DNA of 38,988 bases from Burkholderiales bacterium (GTDB lineage: Bacteria > Pseudomonadota > Gammaproteobacteria > Burkholderiales > Burkholderiaceae_C), in assembly GCA_016192425.1 (NCBI GenBank), contig JACPUE010000047.1:1-38988 (forward strand). The letters are read 5' to 3'. The notes under the pieces are model-generated. The model was not told where the DNA came from, ran no database searches, and was given only the letters and a program-made list of their open reading frames with translations. A program made the position numbers and the translations under genes. Positions 10,859 through 35,379 of this stretch are shown here, piece after piece (the stretch's first letter is position 1; the number at the start of each line of letters is the position of its first letter).

Positions 10859-12301
10859 ATGAAACACGCCACCCCCCTCCTGGCCCTGTGGGCCTTTCTG
10901 TTTGCCGGGGCTTCCCTGGCGCAACCGGCACGCCCGCCTGCCGCCCCGGTGGCTGCGTCTGCGCAGGCTGCGGCCGGGCCGCAGCAGTTCCAGCTTTCCA
11001 ACGGCATGCAGCTCATCGTGCAGCCCGACCGGCGCGCGCCTACGGCGGTGCACATGGTTTGGGTGCGCGTGGGCGCCATGGACGAGGTCGATGGCACCTC
11101 GGGCGTGGCCCACGCGCTGGAGCACATGATGTTCAAGGGCTCGCGCAGCGTGCCGCCGGGCGAATTCTCGCGCCGCGTGGCGGCCCTGGGCGGGCAGGAA
11201 AACGCCTTCACCAGCCTGGACTACACCGGCTACTACCAGCAGATTCCGTCGCACCGGCTTGAAGACGTGATGCGCCTGGAATCCGACCGCTTTGCCCACA
11301 ACGAATGGCCCGACGCCGAATTCCGCAAGGAGATCGAGGTGGTCAAGGAAGAGCGCCGCATGCGCACCGAAGACCAGCCGCGCGCCTTGCTGTGGGAGCA
11401 GCTCAGTGCGGCAGCCTTCACCGCCTCGCCGTACCGGCGCCCCATCGTCGGCTGGATGAGCGACCTGGATGCCATGGCGCCCGAGGACGTGCGCCAGTTC
11501 CACCGCCAGTGGTACGTGCCGGGCAACGCCGCCGTGGTGGTGGCGGGCGATGTGGATGTGGCGCAGGTGCGCGCGCTGGCTGAAAAGTACTACGGCAGCA
11601 TCCCCACGCGCGCCGTGCCTGTGCGCAAGCCGCGCGCCGAGCCGCCTCAGCGCGGGCTGCGCCGCATCGAGGTCAAGGCCCCTGCCGAGCAGGCCTATGT
11701 GGCGCTGGCGTTCCGCGTGCCCGCGCTCAGTGCGGTGGACGCCCCCAGCGCCGAGGATCGCGACGCGCTGGCGCTGATCGTGCTATCCGCCGTACTCAGC
11801 GGCTACGACGGCGCGCGCCTGGAGCGTGCCCTCACCCAGGGCGCGCAGCGCGTGGCCGACAGCGCCGACAGCGGCGCCTCGGTCATGGGGCGCGGGCCGT
11901 CGCAGTTTGTGCTCACGGGCGTTCCGGCCCAGGGCAAAACGGCGCGGCAGGTCGAAGACGCCCTGCGCGCCGAGCTGGCGCGCGTGGCCCGCGACGGGGT
12001 GAGCACGGCAGAGCTCGAGCGCGTCAAGACCCAGTGGATCGCCGCTAAGGTGTACGAGCGCGATTCGGTCATGGGCCAGGGGCAAAGCCTGGGCCAGCAC
12101 TGGGTGCGCGGCTGGCCGCTGGACGCCGAAGACCGCCTGCTGGCGCAGTTGCGCACCGTCACGCCGCAGCAAGTGCAGGCCGTGGCGCAGCGCTACTTTG
12201 GCGACGACCAGCTCACCGTGGCCACCCTGGTGCCCCAGCCCCTGCCTGCGGGCGCTGCCCGTGCAGGCGGCGCGTCCGGGGCCGCAGCCCATCGCCATTG
12301 A
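10859..12301 (+). CDS. periplasmic M16 zinc peptidase, catalytic member
   Basis: This 480-residue protein has a clear signal peptide (MKHATPLLALWAFLFAGASL, then AQ). It carries the inverted zinc motif of family M16, HALEH at residues 85-89, and the downstream ligand Glu in EVVKEERR. The two-lobed length fits processing-peptidase-like M16B proteins exported to the periplasm. The next gene encodes an M16 protein without the zinc motif, so the pair probably forms a heterodimer like mitochondrial processing peptidase or bacterial M16 pairs. It ends where the next gene's leader begins and is divergent from ftsY. The substrate is unknown. The ATG at 10859 is preferred because it gives the signal peptide; the frame is open far upstream, opposite ftsY, by chance. 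Confidence 0.93.
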   Translation: MKHATPLLALWAFLFAGASLAQPARPPAAPVAASAQAAAGPQQFQLSNGMQLIVQPDRRAPTAVHMVWVRVGAMDEVDGTSGVAHALEHMMFKGSRSVPPGEFSRRVAALGGQENAFTSLDYTGYYQQIPSHRLEDVMRLESDRFAHNEWPDAEFRKEIEVVKEERRMRTEDQPRALLWEQLSAAAFTASPYRRPIVGWMSDLDAMAPEDVRQFHRQWYVPGNAAVVVAGDVDVAQVRALAEKYYGSIPTRAVPVRKPRAEPPQRGLRRIEVKAPAEQAYVALAFRVPALSAVDAPSAEDRDALALIVLSAVLSGYDGARLERALTQGAQRVADSADSGASVMGRGPSQFVLTGVPAQGKTARQVEDALRAELARVARDGVSTAELERVKTQWIAAKVYERDSVMGQGQSLGQHWVRGWPLDAEDRLLAQLRTVTPQQVQAVAQRYFGDDQLTVATLVPQPLPAGAARAGGASGAAAHRH

Positions 12302-12336
12302 TGCCCACCGACCGGGCCCATCCAGGATTTATTGCC

Positions 12337-13683
12337 ATGAATGCTATAAAAACAATAGCTGCTCGCGCTTTATTCATAAGCGCTGGGATACTATTTTATG
12401 CTCAATCTGCCTGGGCGCTGCTGCCCATACAGCATTGGCAGGAGCCCAGCGGCGCCCGCGTCTGGCTGGTGGAAAGCCCCGCCATTCCCATGGTGGACGT
12501 GCAGATCGACTTTGACGCCGGCTCCCGGCGCGACCCTGCAGAGCAGGCCGGCCTGGCCCAGGCGCTGGCGGGCATGGTGTCCAAGGGCGTGCGCGCCGGG
12601 CGCGGCTTTGCCGCCCTGGACGAAAACGCCCTGGGCGAAGCCTGGGCCGACCTGGGCGCGCAGTTCGAGGCCAGCGCCGGGCGCGATGCGCTGAGCTTCT
12701 CGCTGCGCACGCTCACCGAACCTGAATTGCTGGACAAGGCCGTGCACCTGGCGGCGCGCGAGATGGCCGAGCCTGCCTTGCCGCCCGACATATGGGCGCG
12801 CGAGCGAGCGCGCTGGAGCGCCAGCCTGCGCGAGGCCGACACCCGCCCCGGCACCGTGGCCGCCAAGGCGTTCTCCAGTGCCGTGTACGGCAGCCACCCC
12901 TATGGGCAGCGGCCCATGCCGCAAACGCTGGACCGCATCCAGGCCGCCGACCTGCAGCGCTTCCACAGCCAGCATCTGGACGCCTGCCGCGCCCGCGTGC
13001 ACATCGTGGGCGCGGTGGGCAAGGCGCAGGCGCGGCTGCTGGTGGCTGCGCTGCTGGCGCGCCTGCCGGCCTCCAGCCCCTGCGCCAACCTGCCCGCCGT
13101 GCCCGAGGTGGAACCGCTCAAGGCCGCGGCGCAGCAGGACATTCCCTTTGCCTCGGCCCAGGCCCACGTGTACATCGGCCAGCCCGGCTTTGCGCGCAAG
13201 GACCCCGACTTCATCGCGCTGCTGGTGGGCAACCACATCCTGGGCGGCGGGGGCTTTGTCTCGCGCCTGACCGAAGAGGTGCGCGAAAAGCGCGGCCTGA
13301 GCTACAGCGTGTACAGCAGCTTTGCGCCGGGCCTGCACGCGGGCGCATTCAGCATCAGCCTGCAGACCCGGCCCGACCAGGCTGCGCAGGCCGTGCAGGT
13401 GGCGCGCGAGGTGGTCGAACGCTTTGTGGCCGAAGGCCCCACCGAAGAAGAACTGCGCGCCGCCAAGGACAACCTGGTGGGCGGCTTTGCCCTGCGCATC
13501 GACAGCAACCGCAAGCTGCTGGCCAACGTGGTCAACATCGCCACCTACGGCCTGCCGCTGGACTACCTGGACGGCTGGACGCGCCGTGTGGAGGCGCTCA
13601 CCGTGGCCGACGTCAAGGCCGCCATGGCGCGCAAGCTCCAGCCTGCGCGCATGGTCACCGTGGTGGTGGGCGCGCAGCCATGA
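12337..13683 (+). CDS. periplasmic M16 peptidase homologue lacking the zinc motif
   Basis: This 448-residue protein is homologous to the upstream M16 peptidase, but the zinc-site region reads AGLAQALAGMVSKG where HALEH is expected, so it is almost surely non-catalytic and acts as partner subunit. The C-terminal lobe keeps the REKRGLSYSVYSS motif typical of M16 C-terminal domains. I choose the ATG at 12337 because it gives a good signal peptide (MNAIKTIAARALFISAGILF, ending AQSAWA). Start codons at 12298 (TTG) and 12301 (ATG) would add a non-hydrophobic tail. Residues 3-21 of the signal peptide are encoded by a copy of a dispersed repeat. The stop overlaps rsmD by 4 bases. Confidence 0.92.
   Translation: MNAIKTIAARALFISAGILFYAQSAWALLPIQHWQEPSGARVWLVESPAIPMVDVQIDFDAGSRRDPAEQAGLAQALAGMVSKGVRAGRGFAALDENALGEAWADLGAQFEASAGRDALSFSLRTLTEPELLDKAVHLAAREMAEPALPPDIWARERARWSASLREADTRPGTVAAKAFSSAVYGSHPYGQRPMPQTLDRIQAADLQRFHSQHLDACRARVHIVGAVGKAQARLLVAALLARLPASSPCANLPAVPEVEPLKAAAQQDIPFASAQAHVYIGQPGFARKDPDFIALLVGNHILGGGGFVSRLTEEVREKRGLSYSVYSSFAPGLHAGAFSISLQTRPDQAAQAVQVAREVVERFVAEGPTEEELRAAKDNLVGGFALRIDSNRKLLANVVNIATYGLPLDYLDGWTRRVEALTVADVKAAMARKLQPARMVTVVVGAQP
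12341..12398 (+). repeat. dispersed repeat A, copy 1 (inside a signal-peptide coding region)
   Basis: The copy begins GCTATAAAAACAATAGC (12343-12359), a 5-bp stem GCTAT/ATAGC, followed by GCGCTT (12365-12370), loop TATTCAT, and AAGCGC (12378-12383). The same order of two hairpins is seen at 33554-33610 and partly at 14359-14416. The element lies wholly within the coding region starting at 12337, with no stop codon in that frame, and encodes the hydrophobic core of the signal peptide. Confidence 0.85.
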
Positions 13684-14357
13684 GCAGCCGTCTGAGCATG
13701 GCCAAGGTGCAGGCTGCCCTGCGTAAAGGTGTGGCCCCTGCCGCTGCCCCGGTCCGCAGCGCAGCCTCCGCCGCAGCGCCAGTGCGCGCCCAAGGCGCCC
13801 AGGGCGCAGGTGAAATCCGCATCATCGGCGGGCAATGGAAGCGCACCCGCCTGCCCGTGCCCCAGCGCCCTGGCCTGCGCCCCACGCCCGACCGCGTGCG
13901 CGAAACCCTGTTCAACTGGCTGGGCCAGGATATGACCGGCTGGCGCTGCCTGGACGCCTTTGCCGGCACTGGCGCCCTGGGGCTGGAGGCCGCGTCGCGC
14001 GGCGCTGCATCGGTGCTGCTGGTGGAGCAGGATGCCGACCTGCTGGCACGGCTGCAGCAGCATGTGCAGCGCCTGCAGGCCGCCAGCGTGCAGCTGCGCC
14101 GCGGCGACGGCGTGGCCGCCCTGCGCCAGTGCGCCGCCGCCAGCCTGGACCTGGTGCTGCTGGATCCGCCGTTCGACAGCGCGCTGTTCCTGCCCGCACT
14201 GCAGGCGGCCGCCCGGGCCGTGGGCCCCCAGGGCTGGGTGTACCTGGAAGCCCCGCAGGCCTGGGACGAAGCAGCCCTGGCCCCCCTGGGGCTGGCCCTG
14301 CACCGCCACCTGCGCGCCGGTGCGGTGCATGCGCACCTGCTGCAGCAGATCCCCTGA
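13680..14357 (+). CDS. rsmD: 16S rRNA (guanine966-N2)-methyltransferase RsmD
   Basis: This 225-residue enzyme methylates G966 of 16S rRNA. It has the start of the family fold at IRIIGGQWKRTRLPVP, then RPTPDRVRETLFNWL, the SAM-binding DAFAGTGALGLEAASRGA and the catalytic DPPF (LLDPPFDSALF). The ATG at 13680 overlaps the upstream stop (ATGA). The first ~45 residues are an Ala/Pro-rich extension absent from E. coli RsmD; an internal ATG gives a start 6 residues later. It lies directly before coaD, a common gene pair in bacteria. Confidence 0.94.
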   Translation: MSSRLSMAKVQAALRKGVAPAAAPVRSAASAAAPVRAQGAQGAGEIRIIGGQWKRTRLPVPQRPGLRPTPDRVRETLFNWLGQDMTGWRCLDAFAGTGALGLEAASRGAASVLLVEQDADLLARLQQHVQRLQAASVQLRRGDGVAALRQCAAASLDLVLLDPPFDSALFLPALQAAARAVGPQGWVYLEAPQAWDEAALAPLGLALHRHLRAGAVHAHLLQQIP

Positions 14358-14358
14358 G

Positions 14359-14416
14359 TGCTATAAAAATAATAGCTGCTTACGCTTATATGGCGGGAGC
14401 TAGTGCTATTTTTTAC
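14359..14416 (+). repeat. dispersed repeat A, copy 2 (rsmD-coaD intergenic)
   Basis: It begins two bases after the rsmD stop with GCTATAAAAATAATAGC (14360-14376), identical to the copy at 33555. The second half (ACGCTTATATGG onward) has decayed and no longer forms the AGCGCTTA/TAAGCGCT stem. It ends in a T-rich stretch. Here the element is non-coding and lies upstream of coaD. Confidence 0.8.
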
Positions 14417-14482
14417 CAGGAAACATGCCAGGCGCCCGCCGCTGCATAATCCGGGCATTCCACTCCCTTGGCCCTGCACACC

Positions 14483-14983
14483 ATGCCCGCACACCGACTC
14501 GCCGTTTACCCCGGAACCTTTGACCCCATCACCCTGGGGCACGAAGACCTGCTGCGCCGCACGGCCCGCCTGTTTGACGGCGTGATCGTCGCCGTGGCCA
14601 TTGCGCACCACAAGAAAACGCTGTTCAGCCTGGACGAGCGCATGGACATGGCGCGCGAGGCGCTGCGCGACTGCCCCCAGGTGCAGGTCGAACCCTTCGA
14701 GGGCTTGGTGACGGCCTTTGCCGCCGCGCGCGGTGCCTGTGCCATGGTGCGCGGCCTGCGCTCGGGCACCGATTTCGACTACGAATTCCAGCTCGCAGGC
14801 ATGAACCGCGCCCTCATGCCGCAGGTGGAGACGGTGTTCCTCACCCCCGACAGCCGCTACCAGTCCATCAGCAGCACGCTGGTGCGCGAGATTGCCACGC
14901 TGGGCGGTGATGTGGCGCAGTTTGTCTCGCCTGTGGTGCACGGGCGGCTGATGCAGAAACTGGGCCGCTCAAGCTTGGCCTGA
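14483..14983 (+). CDS. coaD: phosphopantetheine adenylyltransferase
   Basis: This 166-residue nucleotidyltransferase makes dephospho-CoA from 4'-phosphopantetheine and ATP, the penultimate step of coenzyme A synthesis. It has the HIGH-like motif in VYPGTFDPITLGHEDL near the N terminus and the C-terminal ATP-binding ISSTLVREIA. The length is typical (about 160). The ATG at 14483 is preferred; an upstream in-frame TTG at 14468 adds 5 residues. Other coenzyme A genes in the window are panB, panC and panD. Its 3' end is 2 bases from the convergent metallopeptidase-like gene. Confidence 0.96.
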   Translation: MPAHRLAVYPGTFDPITLGHEDLLRRTARLFDGVIVAVAIAHHKKTLFSLDERMDMAREALRDCPQVQVEPFEGLVTAFAAARGACAMVRGLRSGTDFDYEFQLAGMNRALMPQVETVFLTPDSRYQSISSTLVREIATLGGDVAQFVSPVVHGRLMQKLGRSSLA

Positions 14984-18170: not shown

Positions 18171-18318
18171 TGTAACACCCCCCTGAGGTGCTGCGCACCT
18201 TTCCCCCGCTCTCGCATTGCTACGCAATGCGGGCAGGGGGACGCTCCCGGCGCGGCGGGGCGGCCCTTGCGCGGGAGCCCTGGCTTGGGGCGCGCCGGTT
18301 TCATCCGCTGTGGGTGCC
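18171..18318 (+). repeat. dispersed repeat B, copy 1
   Basis: It starts TGTAACACCCCCCTGAGG just after the regulator stop. It contains a small hairpin GGTGC-TGC-GCACC, a strong hairpin CGCATTGC-TAC-GCAATGCG nested within C-rich and G-rich arms, then the block GGCGCGGCGGGGCGGCCC and TTGCGCGGGAGCCCTGGC, and ends near GGTTTCAT. The same blocks in the same order are at 32260-32412, and a shortened version at 23322-23399. The hairpins may end transcription between two convergent genes. The last ~18 bases lie in the end of the lone receiver gene. Confidence 0.8.
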
Positions 18319-23321: not shown

Positions 23322-23399
23322 TGAAACACCCCCCTGAGTCGCCTTCGGCGCCTGGCCTGGGGCGCGCCGGTTTCATGCGTTGCGGGTGGTGCAAGCACC
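23322..23399 (+). repeat. dispersed repeat B, copy 2 (shortened)
   Basis: It starts TGAAACACCCCCCTGAG, has a small hairpin CGCC-TTC-GGCG, then joins directly to CTGGCCTGGGGCGCGCCGG and TTTCATGCGTTGCGGGTG. Compared with copies at 18171 and 32260 the middle block is missing, which looks like a deletion between the C-rich and G-rich arms. It fills the secB-gpsA gap. Confidence 0.75.
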
Positions 23400-24450: not shown

Positions 24451-25128
24451 CTACCGTCTGCAAAATGCGTTGCCCATGCCAGGGCTCCCGCGCAAGGGCC
24501 GTCCCGCCGCGCTGGGTGTCTCCGCTATTTCGCGCCACTGTCCTGGCTCCAGGCTGTCCAAGGCCCATGGCCCGATGCGCACGCGCACCAGGCGCAGCGT
24601 GGGCAGGCCCACGGCGGCGGTCATGCGGCGCACCTGGCGGTTGCGGCCCTCGCGGATGGTGAGTTCCAGCCATGCTGTTGGAATACTCTGGCGCACCCGG
24701 ATGGGCGGCTGGCGCTCCCACAGTGCGGGCGGCTGGGCCAGGCACTGCGCCTGGGCGGGCAGGGTGGGGCCGTCGTTCAGCAGCACACCCTGGCGCAGGG
24801 TTTCCAGCTGGGCCTCGCTGGGCGCGCCTTCCACCTGTACCCAGTAGGTCTTGGGCAGCTTGTGGCGCGGGTCGGCAATGTGTGCCTGCAGGCGCCCGTC
24901 ATTGGTCAGCAGCAGCAGGCCTTCGCTGTCGGCATCGAGGCGCCCGGCCACGTAGACGCCGGGCACATCGATGTAGTCCTTGAGCCCTTGCCAACGCCCT
25001 TCGGGGGTGAACTGGCTCAGCACGCCCCAGGGCTTGTTGAAGCACAGCAGCCTGGGGGCAGCGTCGGCGCCATCGGCGCGGCCCGGGCGTGGCCTGGGCG
25101 GAAGGTGCAGGCGGGGACGGGCGCTCAT
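24451..25128 (-). CDS. rluE: 23S rRNA pseudouridine synthase, RluE-like
   Basis: This 225-residue protein belongs to the RsuA/RluB/E/F family that makes pseudouridine in rRNA. It lacks the S4 RNA-binding domain of RsuA and RluB, as RluE does. It shows LLCFNKPWGVLSQFTPEGR, the catalytic-Asp motif VAGRLDADSEGLLLLTNDG, LTIREGRNRQVRRMTAAVG and an ending GPWALDSLEPGQWREI like RluE. The last ~24 residues after WREIAE are extra and are encoded by a fragment of repeat B. The ATG at 25128 overlaps the M23 peptidase stop (ATGA). RluE acts on U2457 in E. coli; the site here is inferred from homology. Confidence 0.88.
   Translation of the reverse strand: MSARPRLHLPPRPRPGRADGADAAPRLLCFNKPWGVLSQFTPEGRWQGLKDYIDVPGVYVAGRLDADSEGLLLLTNDGRLQAHIADPRHKLPKTYWVQVEGAPSEAQLETLRQGVLLNDGPTLPAQAQCLAQPPALWERQPPIRVRQSIPTAWLELTIREGRNRQVRRMTAAVGLPTLRLVRVRIGPWALDSLEPGQWREIAETPSAAGRPLRGSPGMGNAFCRR
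24474..24516 (-). repeat. dispersed repeat B, partial copy within the 3' end of the rluE-like gene
   Basis: On the minus strand CAGCGCGGCGGGACGGCCC followed by TTGCGCGGGAGCCCTGGC is nearly identical to the central block of repeat B at 18256-18290 and to 32361-32384. It is read in frame and supplies about 15 codons near the end of the gene. Confidence 0.75.
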
Positions 25129-32259: not shown

Positions 32260-32412
32260 CCAACCCCCTGTGGCGCTGCGCGCCTTCCCCCTTCTCTCGC
32301 GCGATGCGCGGGAAGGGGGACGCTCCCAGCGCCCGCACATGGGAATGCTGGCGGCCCTTGCGCGGGAGCCCTGGCCTGGGCCGCTGCGGTTTCATACATC
32401 GCGGGTGCTATA
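32260..32412 (+). repeat. dispersed repeat B, copy 3 (nadC-nadA intergenic)
   Basis: It begins directly after the nadC stop with CCAACCCCCTG, has hairpin GGCGC-TGC-GCGCC, then a long stem with arms CCCCCTT and AAGGGGG, GACGCTCCCAGCGC, and the shared block GGCGGCCCTTGCGCGGGAGC followed by CCTGGCCTGGGCC and GGTTTCATACATCGCGGGTG. Relative to the copy at 18171 it has an insertion (CCGCACATGGGAATGCT) in the middle. The frame of nadA is open through it by chance. Confidence 0.8.
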
Positions 32413-32434: not shown

Positions 32435-33553
32435 ATGAGTACCACGATCACCCTGAAAGAAGTCGATTACGAGCAGCCCGAAGGCGGTACGGTCTGCTCC
32501 ACCAAACATGCCTGGGCGCGCGTGCCCGCCGAACTGTCGCAGGACGAGCGCGCCGCGCTCAAGGACAAAATCCGCCGCCTGCTGAAGGAAAAGAACGCGG
32601 TCATGGTGTCGCACTACTACGTGCACCCCGACCTGCAGGACCTGGCCGAGGAAACCGGCGGCATCGTCAGCGATTCGCTGGAAATGGCGCGCTTTGGCCG
32701 CGACCATGCGGCCACGAGCCTGGTGGTCAGCGGCGTGCGCTTCATGGGCGAAACGGCCAAGATCCTCTCGCCCGAGAAGACCGTGCTCATGCCCGACCTG
32801 GATGCGACCTGCTCGCTCGACCTGGGCTGCCCCATCGAGGAGTTCAGCGCCTTTTGCGACCAGCACCCCGACCGCACCGTGGTCGTCTATGCCAACACCA
32901 GCGCCGCCGTGAAGGCACGCGCCGACTGGCTCGTCACGTCGAGCTGCGCGCTCGACATCGTGCGTGCGCTCAAGGACCAGGGCCACAAGATCCTGTGGGC
33001 GCCCGACCGCCACCTGGGGGCCTACATCCAGCGCGAAACCGGCGCCGACATGGTGTTCTGGAACGGCGCCTGCATCGTGCACGACGAGTTCAAGGCCTTC
33101 GAGCTGGAGGCACTCAAAAAGGAACACCCCCACGCCAAGGTGCTGGTGCACCCCGAAAGCCCGGCCGAGGTCATCGCCCTGGCCGACGCCGTGGGCTCCA
33201 CATCCGCCATCCTCAAGGCCGCGCAGGCGATGGACGCCCAGGAGTTCATCGTCGCCACCGACAACGGCATGATGCACAAGCTGCGCACGCTCAACCCCGG
33301 CAAGCGCTTCATCGAGGCCCCCACCGCGGGCAACAGCGCTACCTGCAAGAGCTGCGCCCACTGCCCCTGGATGGCCATGAACGGCCTGGCCGACGTGGCC
33401 CGCGTGCTGGAAACCGGCGCCAACGCCATCCACGTGGACCCGGCGCTGATCCCGCGCGCACGCCTGCCCATAGACCGCATGCTGGCTTTCACCGCCGCCC
33501 TGCGCAGCGGCCAGCCAGCCAGCGGCCTGGTGCCCCATATTGGCGCGGCATGA
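32435..33553 (+). CDS. nadA: quinolinate synthase
   Basis: This 372-residue iron-sulfur enzyme condenses iminoaspartate and dihydroxyacetone phosphate to quinolinate, the NAD precursor used by NadC. Cysteines fit the three [4Fe-4S] ligands: [21 protein letters not shown] and [10 protein letters not shown]. It also has [17 protein letters not shown] and the [13 protein letters not shown] stretch. The ATG at 32435 is chosen because upstream in-frame codons are repeat B sequence. It is 175 bases after nadC. Confidence 0.97.
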
Positions 33554-33610
33554 TGCTATAAAAATAATAGCTGCTAGCGCTTATCCAATAAGCGCTGGAG
33601 GCCATTTTGA
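33554..33610 (+). repeat. dispersed repeat A, copy 3 (nadA stop to pabBC start)
   Basis: This is the most complete copy. It begins directly after the nadA stop: hairpin 1 GCTAT-AAAAATA-ATAGC (33555-33571), hairpin 2 AGCGCTTA-TCCAA-TAAGCGCT (33576-33596), then GGAGG-CCATT-TTG. The GGAGG at 33597-33601 is a full Shine-Dalgarno sequence 5 bases before the TTG that starts the pabBC frame. Confidence 0.88.
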
Positions 33611-35379
33611 CCATTGGTTCTCTGATCGACTTTGCCGACCCGCATGATGCGGCCGGTGCCCGCCTGCGCCATGGATTTGGCGCGCCACGCACCGTGTGGG
33701 CGGCCCATGCGCTGCACGAGGTGCGCGCCGTGCTCGACGCCGCCGAGGCCGCGGCGCGGGGCGGTGCCTGGGTGCTGGGCTGGCTGCGCTACGAGGCCGC
33801 GCCCGCGTTCGACCCCGCGCTCGCCGTGCAGGCGGGCGACCCCGTGCTGCCCCTGGCCTGGTTTGCCGCACACGATGCACCGCTGCCCTGGCCCACCGCA
33901 GCGACAGCGGCAGACGATGCGCGCATCGAATGGCACTCCCAGCCCGAGCGCGCCGCGTTTGACGCCGCGCTGGCGCACATCCAGGACGGCATTGCGCGCG
34001 GCACCTACTACCAGGTCAACCACACCGCACGGCTGCGCGGGCGCTGGTCGGGCACGCCGCAGGCCTTGTTTGCCGCGTTGCAGCGCGCCCAGGGCGGCGG
34101 CTATGCGGCGTGGATCGATGGCGCAGCGGCGGGGCAGGTGCTGTCCGTCTCACCCGAGCTGTTCTTCGACTGGCAGGCCGGGCCGCAGGGCAGCGGCCCC
34201 ATCCTCACCCGCCCCATGAAAGGCACGGCCGCACGCGGCGCCACGCCGCAGGACGATGCCGCGCAGGCCGCGCACCTGCGCAACTCGCCCAAGGAGCGCG
34301 CCGAAAACGTGATGATCGTGGACCTGCTGCGCAACGACCTCTCGCGCATCGCCCAGCCGCACAGCGTGCGCGTGCCCCGCCTGTTCCATACCGAGGCGCT
34401 GCCCACCGTGTGGCAGATGACCTCGGACGTGGCCGCCACCACGCGCACGGGCACGCGGCTGCAGGACGTGTTTGCGGCGCTGTTCCCCTGTGGCTCCGTC
34501 ACGGGCGCGCCCAAGGTGCAGGCCATGCGCGCCATCGCCCAGCTCGAAGACGGACCGCGCGGCGTGTACTGCGGCGCCGTGGGCCTGCTGCGTCCCGCCG
34601 CCGGTGGCGGCCTGCACGCCACCTTCAACGTGCCCATCCGCACCGTCGAACTGCAGGGCAGCGAGGCCCGCTGCGGCATTGGGAGCGGCATCGTCTGGGG
34701 CGCCGACGCCAACGCCGAATGGCGCGAATGGGCCGCCAAGCGCGCCTTTGTCGAGCGCGCCAGCGAACCCTTCGACCTGCTGGAAACGCTGCGGTTGGAG
34801 GACGGCGCCTACCGCCACCTGCCCGAGCACCTGGCGCGCATGGAGCGGGCGGCCGCGGATTTCGGCGTGCCTTGGGACGGTGCCGCCGTGTACCAGTGCC
34901 TGCAGGCGCTGGCGGCAAAGCACCCGCAGGGCGCCTGGCGCACGCGCCTGCTGCTCTGCGCCGCAGGCACGCCGCGAGCCGAGGCCTTTGCCCTGGCCCC
35001 CACGCCCGAACCCGTGCTGCTGCGCCTGGCGCAGCGACCGCTGGCCCAGGCGCACGGCGAATTCGTGCGCCACAAGACCACGCGCCGTGCGCACTACACA
35101 GCCTTTGCTCCCAAGGAACCCGGCGTTTTCGACACCGTGCTGTGGAACGAGGAAGGCGAGATCACTGAAAGCACCTTCGGCAACATCGCCATGCTGCTCG
35201 ATGGCCGCTGGGTCACGCCGCCGCTCGCCTGCGGCCTGCTGCCCGGCGTGGGCCGTGCCGTGGCGTTGCGCGATGGCCGGGTGATGGAGGCCGTGGTGCG
35301 GCTTCAGGATCTGCCGCGCGTGCAGGGCTGGGCCTTCATCAACAGCCTGCGCGGCTGGCTGCAGGCGCGCCTGGGCTGA
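33607..35379 (+). CDS. pabBC: fused aminodeoxychorismate synthase component I / aminodeoxychorismate lyase
   Basis: The 590-residue protein joins two folate-pathway enzymes. The N-terminal ~370 residues are PabB-like (chorismate-binding): TRPMKGTAARG with the catalytic Lys, ERAENVMIVDLLRNDLSRIA, FPCGSVTGAPKVQAM and CGIGSGIVWGADA. The C-terminal ~220 are a PLP-dependent PabC-like lyase with RHKTTRRAHY (PLP Lys) and NEEGEITESTFGNIAMLLDG. Together they make p-aminobenzoate from chorismate, with glutamine nitrogen supplied by a PabA that is not seen here. The start is TTG at 33607: an in-frame TAA at 33589 excludes a longer protein, there is no ATG or GTG for many codons, and GGAGG lies 5 bases upstream within repeat A. 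Confidence 0.93.
   Translation: MTIGSLIDFADPHDAAGARLRHGFGAPRTVWAAHALHEVRAVLDAAEAAARGGAWVLGWLRYEAAPAFDPALAVQAGDPVLPLAWFAAHDAPLPWPTAATAADDARIEWHSQPERAAFDAALAHIQDGIARGTYYQVNHTARLRGRWSGTPQALFAALQRAQGGGYAAWIDGAAAGQVLSVSPELFFDWQAGPQGSGPILTRPMKGTAARGATPQDDAAQAAHLRNSPKERAENVMIVDLLRNDLSRIAQPHSVRVPRLFHTEALPTVWQMTSDVAATTRTGTRLQDVFAALFPCGSVTGAPKVQAMRAIAQLEDGPRGVYCGAVGLLRPAAGGGLHATFNVPIRTVELQGSEARCGIGSGIVWGADANAEWREWAAKRAFVERASEPFDLLETLRLEDGAYRHLPEHLARMERAAADFGVPWDGAAVYQCLQALAAKHPQGAWRTRLLLCAAGTPRAEAFALAPTPEPVLLRLAQRPLAQAHGEFVRHKTTRRAHYTAFAPKEPGVFDTVLWNEEGEITESTFGNIAMLLDGRWVTPPLACGLLPGVGRAVALRDGRVMEAVVRLQDLPRVQGWAFINSLRGWLQARLG

What the first reader, a model, noticed from the sequence alone, without database searches (positions are those of the whole stretch)
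12337..12420. A dispersed repeat encodes the signal peptide of an M16 peptidase homologue
The reading frame from the ATG at 12337 passes through a full copy of repeat A (GCTATAAAAACAATAGC, then a GCGCTT/AAGCGC stem) without a stop, and those bases encode AIKTIAARALFISAGILFY, an ideal signal-peptide core followed by AQSAWA. The same element is non-coding at 14359 and sits at a start codon at 33554. It appears that a mobile or multiplying repeat was captured as an export signal. What is seen: sequence identity and frame. What is inferred: that it replaced or created the signal peptide.
Basis: partly seen in the sequence, partly recalled or inferred. Interest (0 to 1): 0.7.

Follow-up and report, generated by a model that had tools for sequence, protein, structure and literature searches.

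The report
Dispersed repeat encodes signal peptides
A short DNA repeat scattered through the genomes of Comamonas-type bacteria also forms the start of several secreted proteins, where it spells their export signals; it looks like an old and repeated re-use of the repeat rather than a single accident.

Summary
The frame from ATG 12337 runs through a dispersed two-stem repeat (201 copies within 2 mismatches in this 3.67-Mb genome) that encodes the signal peptide (SP) of an M16 peptidase homologue.

The idea of one capture is too narrow. (1) 76 of 110 M16 orthologue loci have repeat-like SP DNA, so the capture is old. (2) In the same genome the repeat also forms the predicted SPs of SCO1, SIMPL, a LivK-type binding protein, GspD, an ABC auxiliary lipoprotein and a lytic transglycosylase. 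It also lies in frame inside MiaA, PepN, a biotin-carboxylase linker and a patatin, and in reverse orientation in five more genes. (3) Protein similarity does not explain the DNA identity (0 of 20,000 back-translations for each of 11 genes). (4) The DNA match follows repeat copy number (Spearman 0.84 for M16, n=79 with five duplicate pairs). (5) In PepN and MiaA the repeat replaces a segment rather than lengthening it.

Nearest known: Rickettsia palindromic elements, and RU-2 in Yersinia YPO1552. I did not find this family in the papers searched. Mobility, the overwriting mechanism and SP function are inferred.

The parts
12337..13683 (+). M16 peptidase homologue (448 aa), start ATG 12337
   Evidence: translation; Pfam PF05193 1.3e-34 and PF00675 4.5e-9
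12337..12417 (+). predicted signal peptide MNAIKTIAARALFISAGILFYAQSAWA with an AxA-like end (AWA); cleavage site inferred
   Evidence: hydropathy maximum 2.12 over 11 residues; no dedicated SP predictor was available
12341..12400 (+). repeat copy in frame +0, GCTAT stem at 12343 and GCGCTT/AAGCGC stem; approximate ends
   Evidence: 33 of 35 consensus positions; consensus of 79 copies
12324..12327 (+). AGGA, possible Shine-Dalgarno, 9 nt before ATG 12337
   Evidence: sequence
10859..12301 (+). upstream M16 peptidase gene, ends 35 nt before ATG 12337
   Evidence: start codon chosen by me at the first ATG of the translation
14358..14417 (+). second repeat copy, intergenic, begins just after TGA 14355-14357
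33553..33612 (+). third repeat copy between a NadA ORF and a chorismate-binding ORF; its tail contains TTG 33607

Best explanation
The signal peptide of the M16 homologue is encoded by a copy of a dispersed element of about 55-60 bp with two stems (GCTAT-N7-ATAGC and GCGCTT-N7-AAGCGC) that is multiplied in many Comamonadaceae genomes. One reading frame of the element (AIKxIAAxALxxSAGxxF) supplies a lysine-bearing n-region and a hydrophobic core; the residues just behind it supply the AxA or lipobox-like end. The element has been recruited repeatedly as the N-terminal export signal of unrelated periplasmic proteins and, with more polar variants, as linkers or loops of cytoplasmic enzymes. In the enzymes it replaced the existing segment instead of being added to it, so the likely process is short-tract replacement (gene conversion or template switching). 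The same process would keep the copies alike while the repeat is abundant and let them drift to GC-rich codons when it is lost. Shown: sequence, frame, DNA-level identity across genes, relation to copy number, absence of a length step. Inferred: mobility, the replacement process, secretion.
For: Copies and frame. Old in M16: 76 of 110 loci score at least 24/36, the best 46-nt match elsewhere in the same genes being 16-21. Other SP genes in the same genome with Pfam support: SCO1, SIMPL, Peripla_BP_6, GspD N0/secretin, ABC_trans_aux, SLT_2; cupredoxin, DUF1775 and NMT1 in other genomes. DNA identity is not explained by the peptide: for each of 11 in-frame copies 0 of 20,000 back-translations with the genome's codon usage reach the observed score; ATA is 3 of 87 Ile codons in the reference set but is used four times in 16 codons of the M16 signal peptide. 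Copy number against DNA match: Spearman 0.84 for M16 (n=79), 0.79 SCO1 (n=30) and 0.69 MiaA (n=26), 0.85 PepN (n=29). No length step: PepN segment 37-43 codons with the repeat (14 rows, score at least 28) and 36-43 without (8 rows, score at most 20); MiaA 39-42 (10 rows) and 34-43 (11 rows). Hydropathy maxima 1.82-2.90 for seven SP copies, 0.59-1.65 for four internal ones.
Against: No empty-site pair at high identity was obtained, so mobility is not shown; the one comparison (L031) failed because the flanking genes differ. Exceptions to the copy-number rule: L058 (22 copies, 20/36), L054 (14 copies, 22/36), L084 (48 copies, 21/36), L066 (0 copies, 25/36); G064 (0 copies, SCO1 29/38), G099 (1 copy, 29/38 in both SCO1 and MiaA), G035 and G071 (0 copies, MiaA 25/38 and 27/38). 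The phylogeny-aware test has only 5 independent pairs (median 5:0, p 0.0625). Two MiaA rows with mid scores are longer (47 codons), as insertion would give. The loci compared are the best-scoring ones, so close relatives are over-represented. Signal-peptide function rests on hydropathy and motifs only.
Confidence: 0.75

Rival explanations
1. The likeness is ordinary signal-peptide convergence: short lysine-plus-alanine/leucine leaders look alike, and the DNA follows from the amino acids.
For: Signal peptides are compositionally similar; the M16 leader keeps its protein pattern in some genomes with no repeats.
Against: 0 of 20,000 back-translations reach the observed DNA match for each of 11 genes; GC of the leader is 0.44 against 0.72 in the mature gene; the same DNA is found inside cytoplasmic enzymes and in intergenic DNA.
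Confidence: 0.03
2. The element is a functional DNA motif (like an uptake or chromosome-organising sequence) that selection creates and keeps in place by point mutation wherever the protein tolerates it; the SPs follow passively.
For: Segments are overwritten without a length step; partial, graded matches are common; both strands are used equally (99 and 102); matches decay in lineages without the repeat.
Against: The motif carries about 59.5 bits over 55 columns, long for assembly by point mutation; I know of no such motif of this length (recalled, not searched beyond).
Confidence: 0.25
3. The direction is reversed: the repeat arose from a signal-peptide coding sequence (M16, SCO1 or another) and spread from there to intergenic DNA and other genes.
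For: The +0 frame is open over 54 nt in 53 of 79 copies and gives a good SP core; the M16 and SCO1 copies are widespread.
Against: The -0 frame is open in 50 of 79 and -1 in 44 of 79 too; in the DNA-chosen sample 69 of 83 copies were not assigned to a gene.
Confidence: 0.12
4. Translation starts downstream and the repeat is only a 5' leader.
For: No proteomic evidence of the start is available.
Against: The first Met after the leader is residue 52, inside the M16 domain that Pfam starts at residue 42; reading frame and leader are conserved in 110 of 110 loci by in-frame extension.
Confidence: 0.02

Closest known systems
Rickettsia palindromic elements (RPE; Ogata et al. 2000, seen only as cited and described in passages of PMC2229807 and PMC2759123)
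   Same: Dispersed palindromic element of an open reading frame, found between genes and in frame inside conserved protein genes.
   Different: RPEs are 105-146 bp and are described as inserted; here about 55-60 bp, no length step in PepN or MiaA, and the commonest coding role seen is a signal peptide. No sequence comparison with RPE was made.
RU-2 / YPAL element in Yersinia YPO1552 (Delihas 2007, PMC2759123, passages read)
   Different: One putative exported protein and a 168-bp element; here many conserved, Pfam-assigned proteins over many genera.
REP/REPIN elements with RAYT transposases
   Same: Short stem-loop repeats, many copies, mostly intergenic.
   Different: No Y1_Tnp (PF01797) match in this genome; Acidovorax, Comamonas, Delftia, Polaromonas and Verminephrobacter are not mentioned in the GTAG/CGTC REP survey (PMC3733652).
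Beta-proteobacterial repeat element BRE (PMC3110155, section 14 read)
   Same: Dispersed repeat reported in Comamonadaceae, some copies inside genes.
   Different: BRE averages 69% GC in Bordetella and is about 90 bp; this element is AT-rich at its core. The BRE sequence itself was not available for comparison.
DNA uptake sequences (DUS/USS)
   Same: Abundant motif that can sit in coding sequence and shape peptides (recalled).
   Different: DUS/USS are about 10-12 bp (recalled); this element is far longer. Uptake was not testable.

Membership tests
Protein-coding palindromic elements (RPE-like, by function) | dispersed in many intergenic copies | tested here: met
   201 copies within 2 mismatches; contexts of 40 exact copies mostly between genes
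Protein-coding palindromic elements (RPE-like, by function) | in frame within genes of known function without breaking them | tested here: met
   PepN, MiaA, biotin-carboxylase linker, patatin and seven leaders in one genome, Pfam-supported
Protein-coding palindromic elements (RPE-like, by function) | present as an added insert relative to orthologues | tested here: not met
   No length step in PepN or in most MiaA rows; two MiaA rows of 47 codons are the exception
Rickettsia RPE family itself | sequence homology to RPE | not tested
   no RPE sequence was fetched
REP/REPIN with RAYT | RAYT (Y1_Tnp) gene in the genome | tested here: not met
   0 matches to PF01797; control rings in 5 of 14 genomes
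MITE | terminal inverted repeats and target-site duplication | tested here: inconclusive
   two internal stems; no empty site obtained
BRE | sequence identity to BRE | not testable with these tools
   paper gives no sequence in the text read; GC content disagrees
Sec signal peptide | positive n-region, hydrophobic core, AxA or lipobox | tested here: met
   n-region charge +1 to +3, hydropathy 1.82-2.90, AxA-like ends; the script's lipobox pattern flagged internal cysteines, so the SCO1 and ABC_trans_aux lipobox assignments (FSAC, VAGC) are mine by eye; no SP predictor run
Known RNA family | Rfam match | tested here: not met
   0 gathering matches in the window; 3 sub-threshold chance-level ones near the 33555 copy

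The most novel reading that the evidence does not exclude
A multiplying DNA element acts as a portable signal-peptide module in a bacterial family: ongoing short-tract conversion between its copies overwrites the leaders of unrelated secreted proteins, so that one selfish or structural DNA sequence dictates the export signals of many genes, and the leaders decay when the element is lost.
Probability: 0.4. Interest if true: 0.85.

Novelty: new variant of a known kind. Interest (0 to 1): 0.7.

Why it matters
If right, it shows in conserved, nameable proteins how export signals can be born and kept alike by a repeat, gives a natural series (from repeat-rich to repeat-free genomes) in which the birth and decay of signal peptides can be dated, and warns that shared leaders in these bacteria are not evidence of shared ancestry of the proteins. 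It also makes testable whether short repeats spread by overwriting coding DNA rather than by insertion.

Tried and rejected
Rfam for the element: nothing above the gathering scores. RNA/DNA folding: only the 33555 copy folds better than shuffles (z -2.43); the M16 copy (z -0.36) and the 14360 copy (z -0.53) do not, so a structural role for the M16 copy is not supported. RAYT search: none. BRE as the same element: set aside on GC content. Empty-site test at the rsmD-coaD gap: L031 has different neighbours, L032 carries a diverged copy at the same place. Automatic gene calls around copies were rough: one search flagged 13 of 83 and missed the M16, SIMPL, ABC_trans_aux and PepN copies, so the list of coding copies was made by reading translations with Pfam. 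Papers on the element: nothing (listings), nor in the passages or sections read (PMC3110155, PMC2755013, PMC2759123, PMC2229807, PMC3733652, PMC11616780); subscription papers are mostly not held. Signal-peptide predictors and structure prediction were not used.

Rows dropped or part-sampled: 83 of 201 copies in the genome were examined (40 of 46 exact ones, 40 of 54 listed with one mismatch, plus the 3 in the window, which are among the 46). MiaA: 30 best of 116 matching genomes were fetched and 4 of these 30 lacked the flanking motif; SCO1: 30 best of 115; PepN: 30 best of 146, 1 of 30 lacked the motif. The 79 M16 rows with copy numbers contain five pairs from what look like the same assemblies; these were removed for the tree (74 rows).

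Full report
What was checked. The reading frame from ATG 12337 passes through a full copy of the repeat and encodes MNAIKTIAARALFISAGILFYAQSAWA in front of an M16 peptidase homologue. The repeat occurs 3 times in the window, against none in 100 shuffles, and 201 times (99 forward, 102 reverse) within 2 mismatches in the genome, with none for the reversed pattern. A second pattern built on the inner stem gives 164 copies within 3 mismatches, control 0.

What the element looks like. From 79 of the 83 sampled copies (those with score at least 24) the consensus is TTGCTATNAAAATAATAGCTGCTAGCGCTT-N7-..GCGCT.GAGGC.AATTT, about 59.5 bits over 55 columns (upper and lower case of the output merged here). 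It holds two short stems. Of the 79, the +0 frame is open over 54 nt in 53, +2 in 37, -0 in 50, -1 in 44, -2 in 1, and +1 in none. Within the family 67 of 299 genomes carry the stem pattern within 2 mismatches (reversed-pattern control seen once in each of two genomes, G258 and G282). In a draw of 300 genomes of the order, the only matches outside the family are single 2-mismatch sites in 2 of 291.

The M16 leader is old. 110 orthologue loci (104 distinct) were compared. 76 score at least 24 of 36 repeat positions, 55 at least 28, 25 at most 20; the best match elsewhere in the same genes is 16-21, and the leader beats its own gene's control in 93 of 110. The protein pattern xIKxIAxxALxxSAGxxFxxxSAWA recurs across the loci. 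The leader of the window gene has GC 0.44 against 0.72 for the mature gene; medians over the 110 are 0.51 and 0.71. The M16 match follows copy number: Spearman 0.84 over 79 rows. 18 rows with at most 2 copies have median 18/36 (16-25); 57 rows with at least 10 copies have median 31/36 (20-36); 4 rows lie between. Within genera: g89 has 226, 39 and 0 copies with 31, 29 and 19; g86 has 251, 119 and 51 with 34, 32 and 27; g73 has 243, 28 and 10 with 34, 25 and 29, which is not monotonic. On a tree of 74 rows the leader state changes at least 12 times and the repeat-rich state 7 times; 5 independent pairs go the same way in the median pairing, p 0.0625, so shared descent is not excluded by this test alone.

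The repeat is the leader of other genes. A search with the M16 leader in 11 genomes of the genus, and a search with a shortened consensus leader in 30 repeat-rich genomes (28 with matches), brought up other genes. In the window's genome, with Pfam support: SCO1/SenC (MPRRNAIKTIAACALFVSAGAIFSAC), SIMPL (MRFAIKIIAASALFISAAPVFSQ), a periplasmic binding protein (MKFAIKTIAVCAMLASAGAAFAQ), GspD (MPTRSFAIKTIAAAALWMGATGQIHA), an ABC-transport auxiliary lipoprotein (MIAMKTIAASACKTGATAVFVLVFVAGC) and a lytic transglycosylase (MIRTFAFATVFIAVCALSTGAEA). In other genomes a cupredoxin, a DUF1775 protein and an NMT1-type binding protein also carry it. Counting M16, that is seven predicted leaders in one genome.

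The repeat also lies inside enzymes. In the same genome it is in frame within MiaA, PepN, a biotin-carboxylase/carrier linker and a patatin-like protein. In reverse orientation it is in frame in AnmK, an epimerase-type protein, CobD, a GntR/aminotransferase regulator and near the start of NAD-dependent DNA ligase. So the element is not a signal-peptide device only. In the DNA-chosen sample of 83 copies, 9 forward coding copies (6 leaders, 3 internal) and 5 reverse ones have Pfam support; the other 69 were not assigned to a gene, including three uncertain N-terminal calls. The LivK-type and MiaA copies came from the protein search and are outside that sample.

DNA identity, not only protein identity. 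For each of 11 in-frame forward copies of this genome, 20,000 back-translations with codon usage from 2,679 codons of the genome never reach the observed match. Observed scores are 25-35 of 35, best random scores 23-29. The internal copies differ in their variable middle: hydropathy maxima are 0.59-1.65 against 1.82-2.90 in leaders, so copies seem adapted to their hosts.

Replacement rather than insertion. With orthologues from 30 genomes each, the PepN segment has 37-43 codons where the DNA is repeat-like (14 rows) and 36-43 where it is not (8 rows); for MiaA 39-42 (10 rows) and 34-43 (11 rows); rows of middle score include two MiaA segments of 47 codons. An element of about 18 codons was therefore not simply added in most cases. 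PepN and MiaA align to solved homologues through the segment with small gaps. Copy number again follows the DNA match: 0.69 MiaA (26 rows), 0.79 SCO1 (30), 0.85 PepN (29). Some genomes without repeats have unrelated SCO1 leaders (for example G007, G036, G061, G001), whereas G064, with 0 copies, keeps 29/38.

Most likely mechanism. Inferred: copies spread and stay alike by short-tract replacement, and those landing at N-termini of secreted proteins are kept because the +0 frame is a good leader. The alternative, that a functional DNA motif is built in place by selection, is not excluded. No strain pair with an empty site was obtained.

Known relatives. RPEs and RU-2/YPAL are the nearest in kind (passages read). 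REP/REPIN is not supported. BRE differs in GC content (section read). I did not find the element in the papers searched.

Noticed in passing
L379 (NZ_KY913898.1 79083-79127, plasmid p2-OXA of Klebsiella oxytoca): A copy of the repeat (82% over 45 nt) lies in a resistance integron between aac(6')-Ib4 and blaOXA-10, overlapping the start of a 57-residue DUF1010 (PF06231) ORF on the other strand. It suggests that this cassette once passed through a repeat-bearing Comamonadaceae genome. A DUF1010 cassette is reported as common in blaGES-5 integrons (PMC11616780, passages)..
   Followed up: partly
window 18239-18317, 23331-23389, 24473-24523, 32350-32408: A second, GC-rich dispersed repeat (GGCGGCCCTTGCGCGGGAGCCCTGGC...) in both orientations. 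Its GC content and range would fit BRE, which was not tested.
   Followed up: no
rsmD-coaD gap, window 14355-14483, and fetched orthologues: Several relatives carry a diverged copy of the element in this same gap, some in the other orientation, as if the site is refilled.
   Followed up: partly
NZ_CP049911.1 and three other Comamonadaceae plasmids: The repeat is found on 5 of 72,556 plasmid records, four of them from Comamonas, Acidovorax or Diaphorobacter; no match in 50,697 phage records at the limit used.
   Followed up: no
G303:C2:27112 (L178): A DUF1289-like short protein (name recalled, not run through Pfam) starts with MNAIQTIAARASALSAAGYF from the repeat although it is not expected to be secreted.
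   Followed up: no
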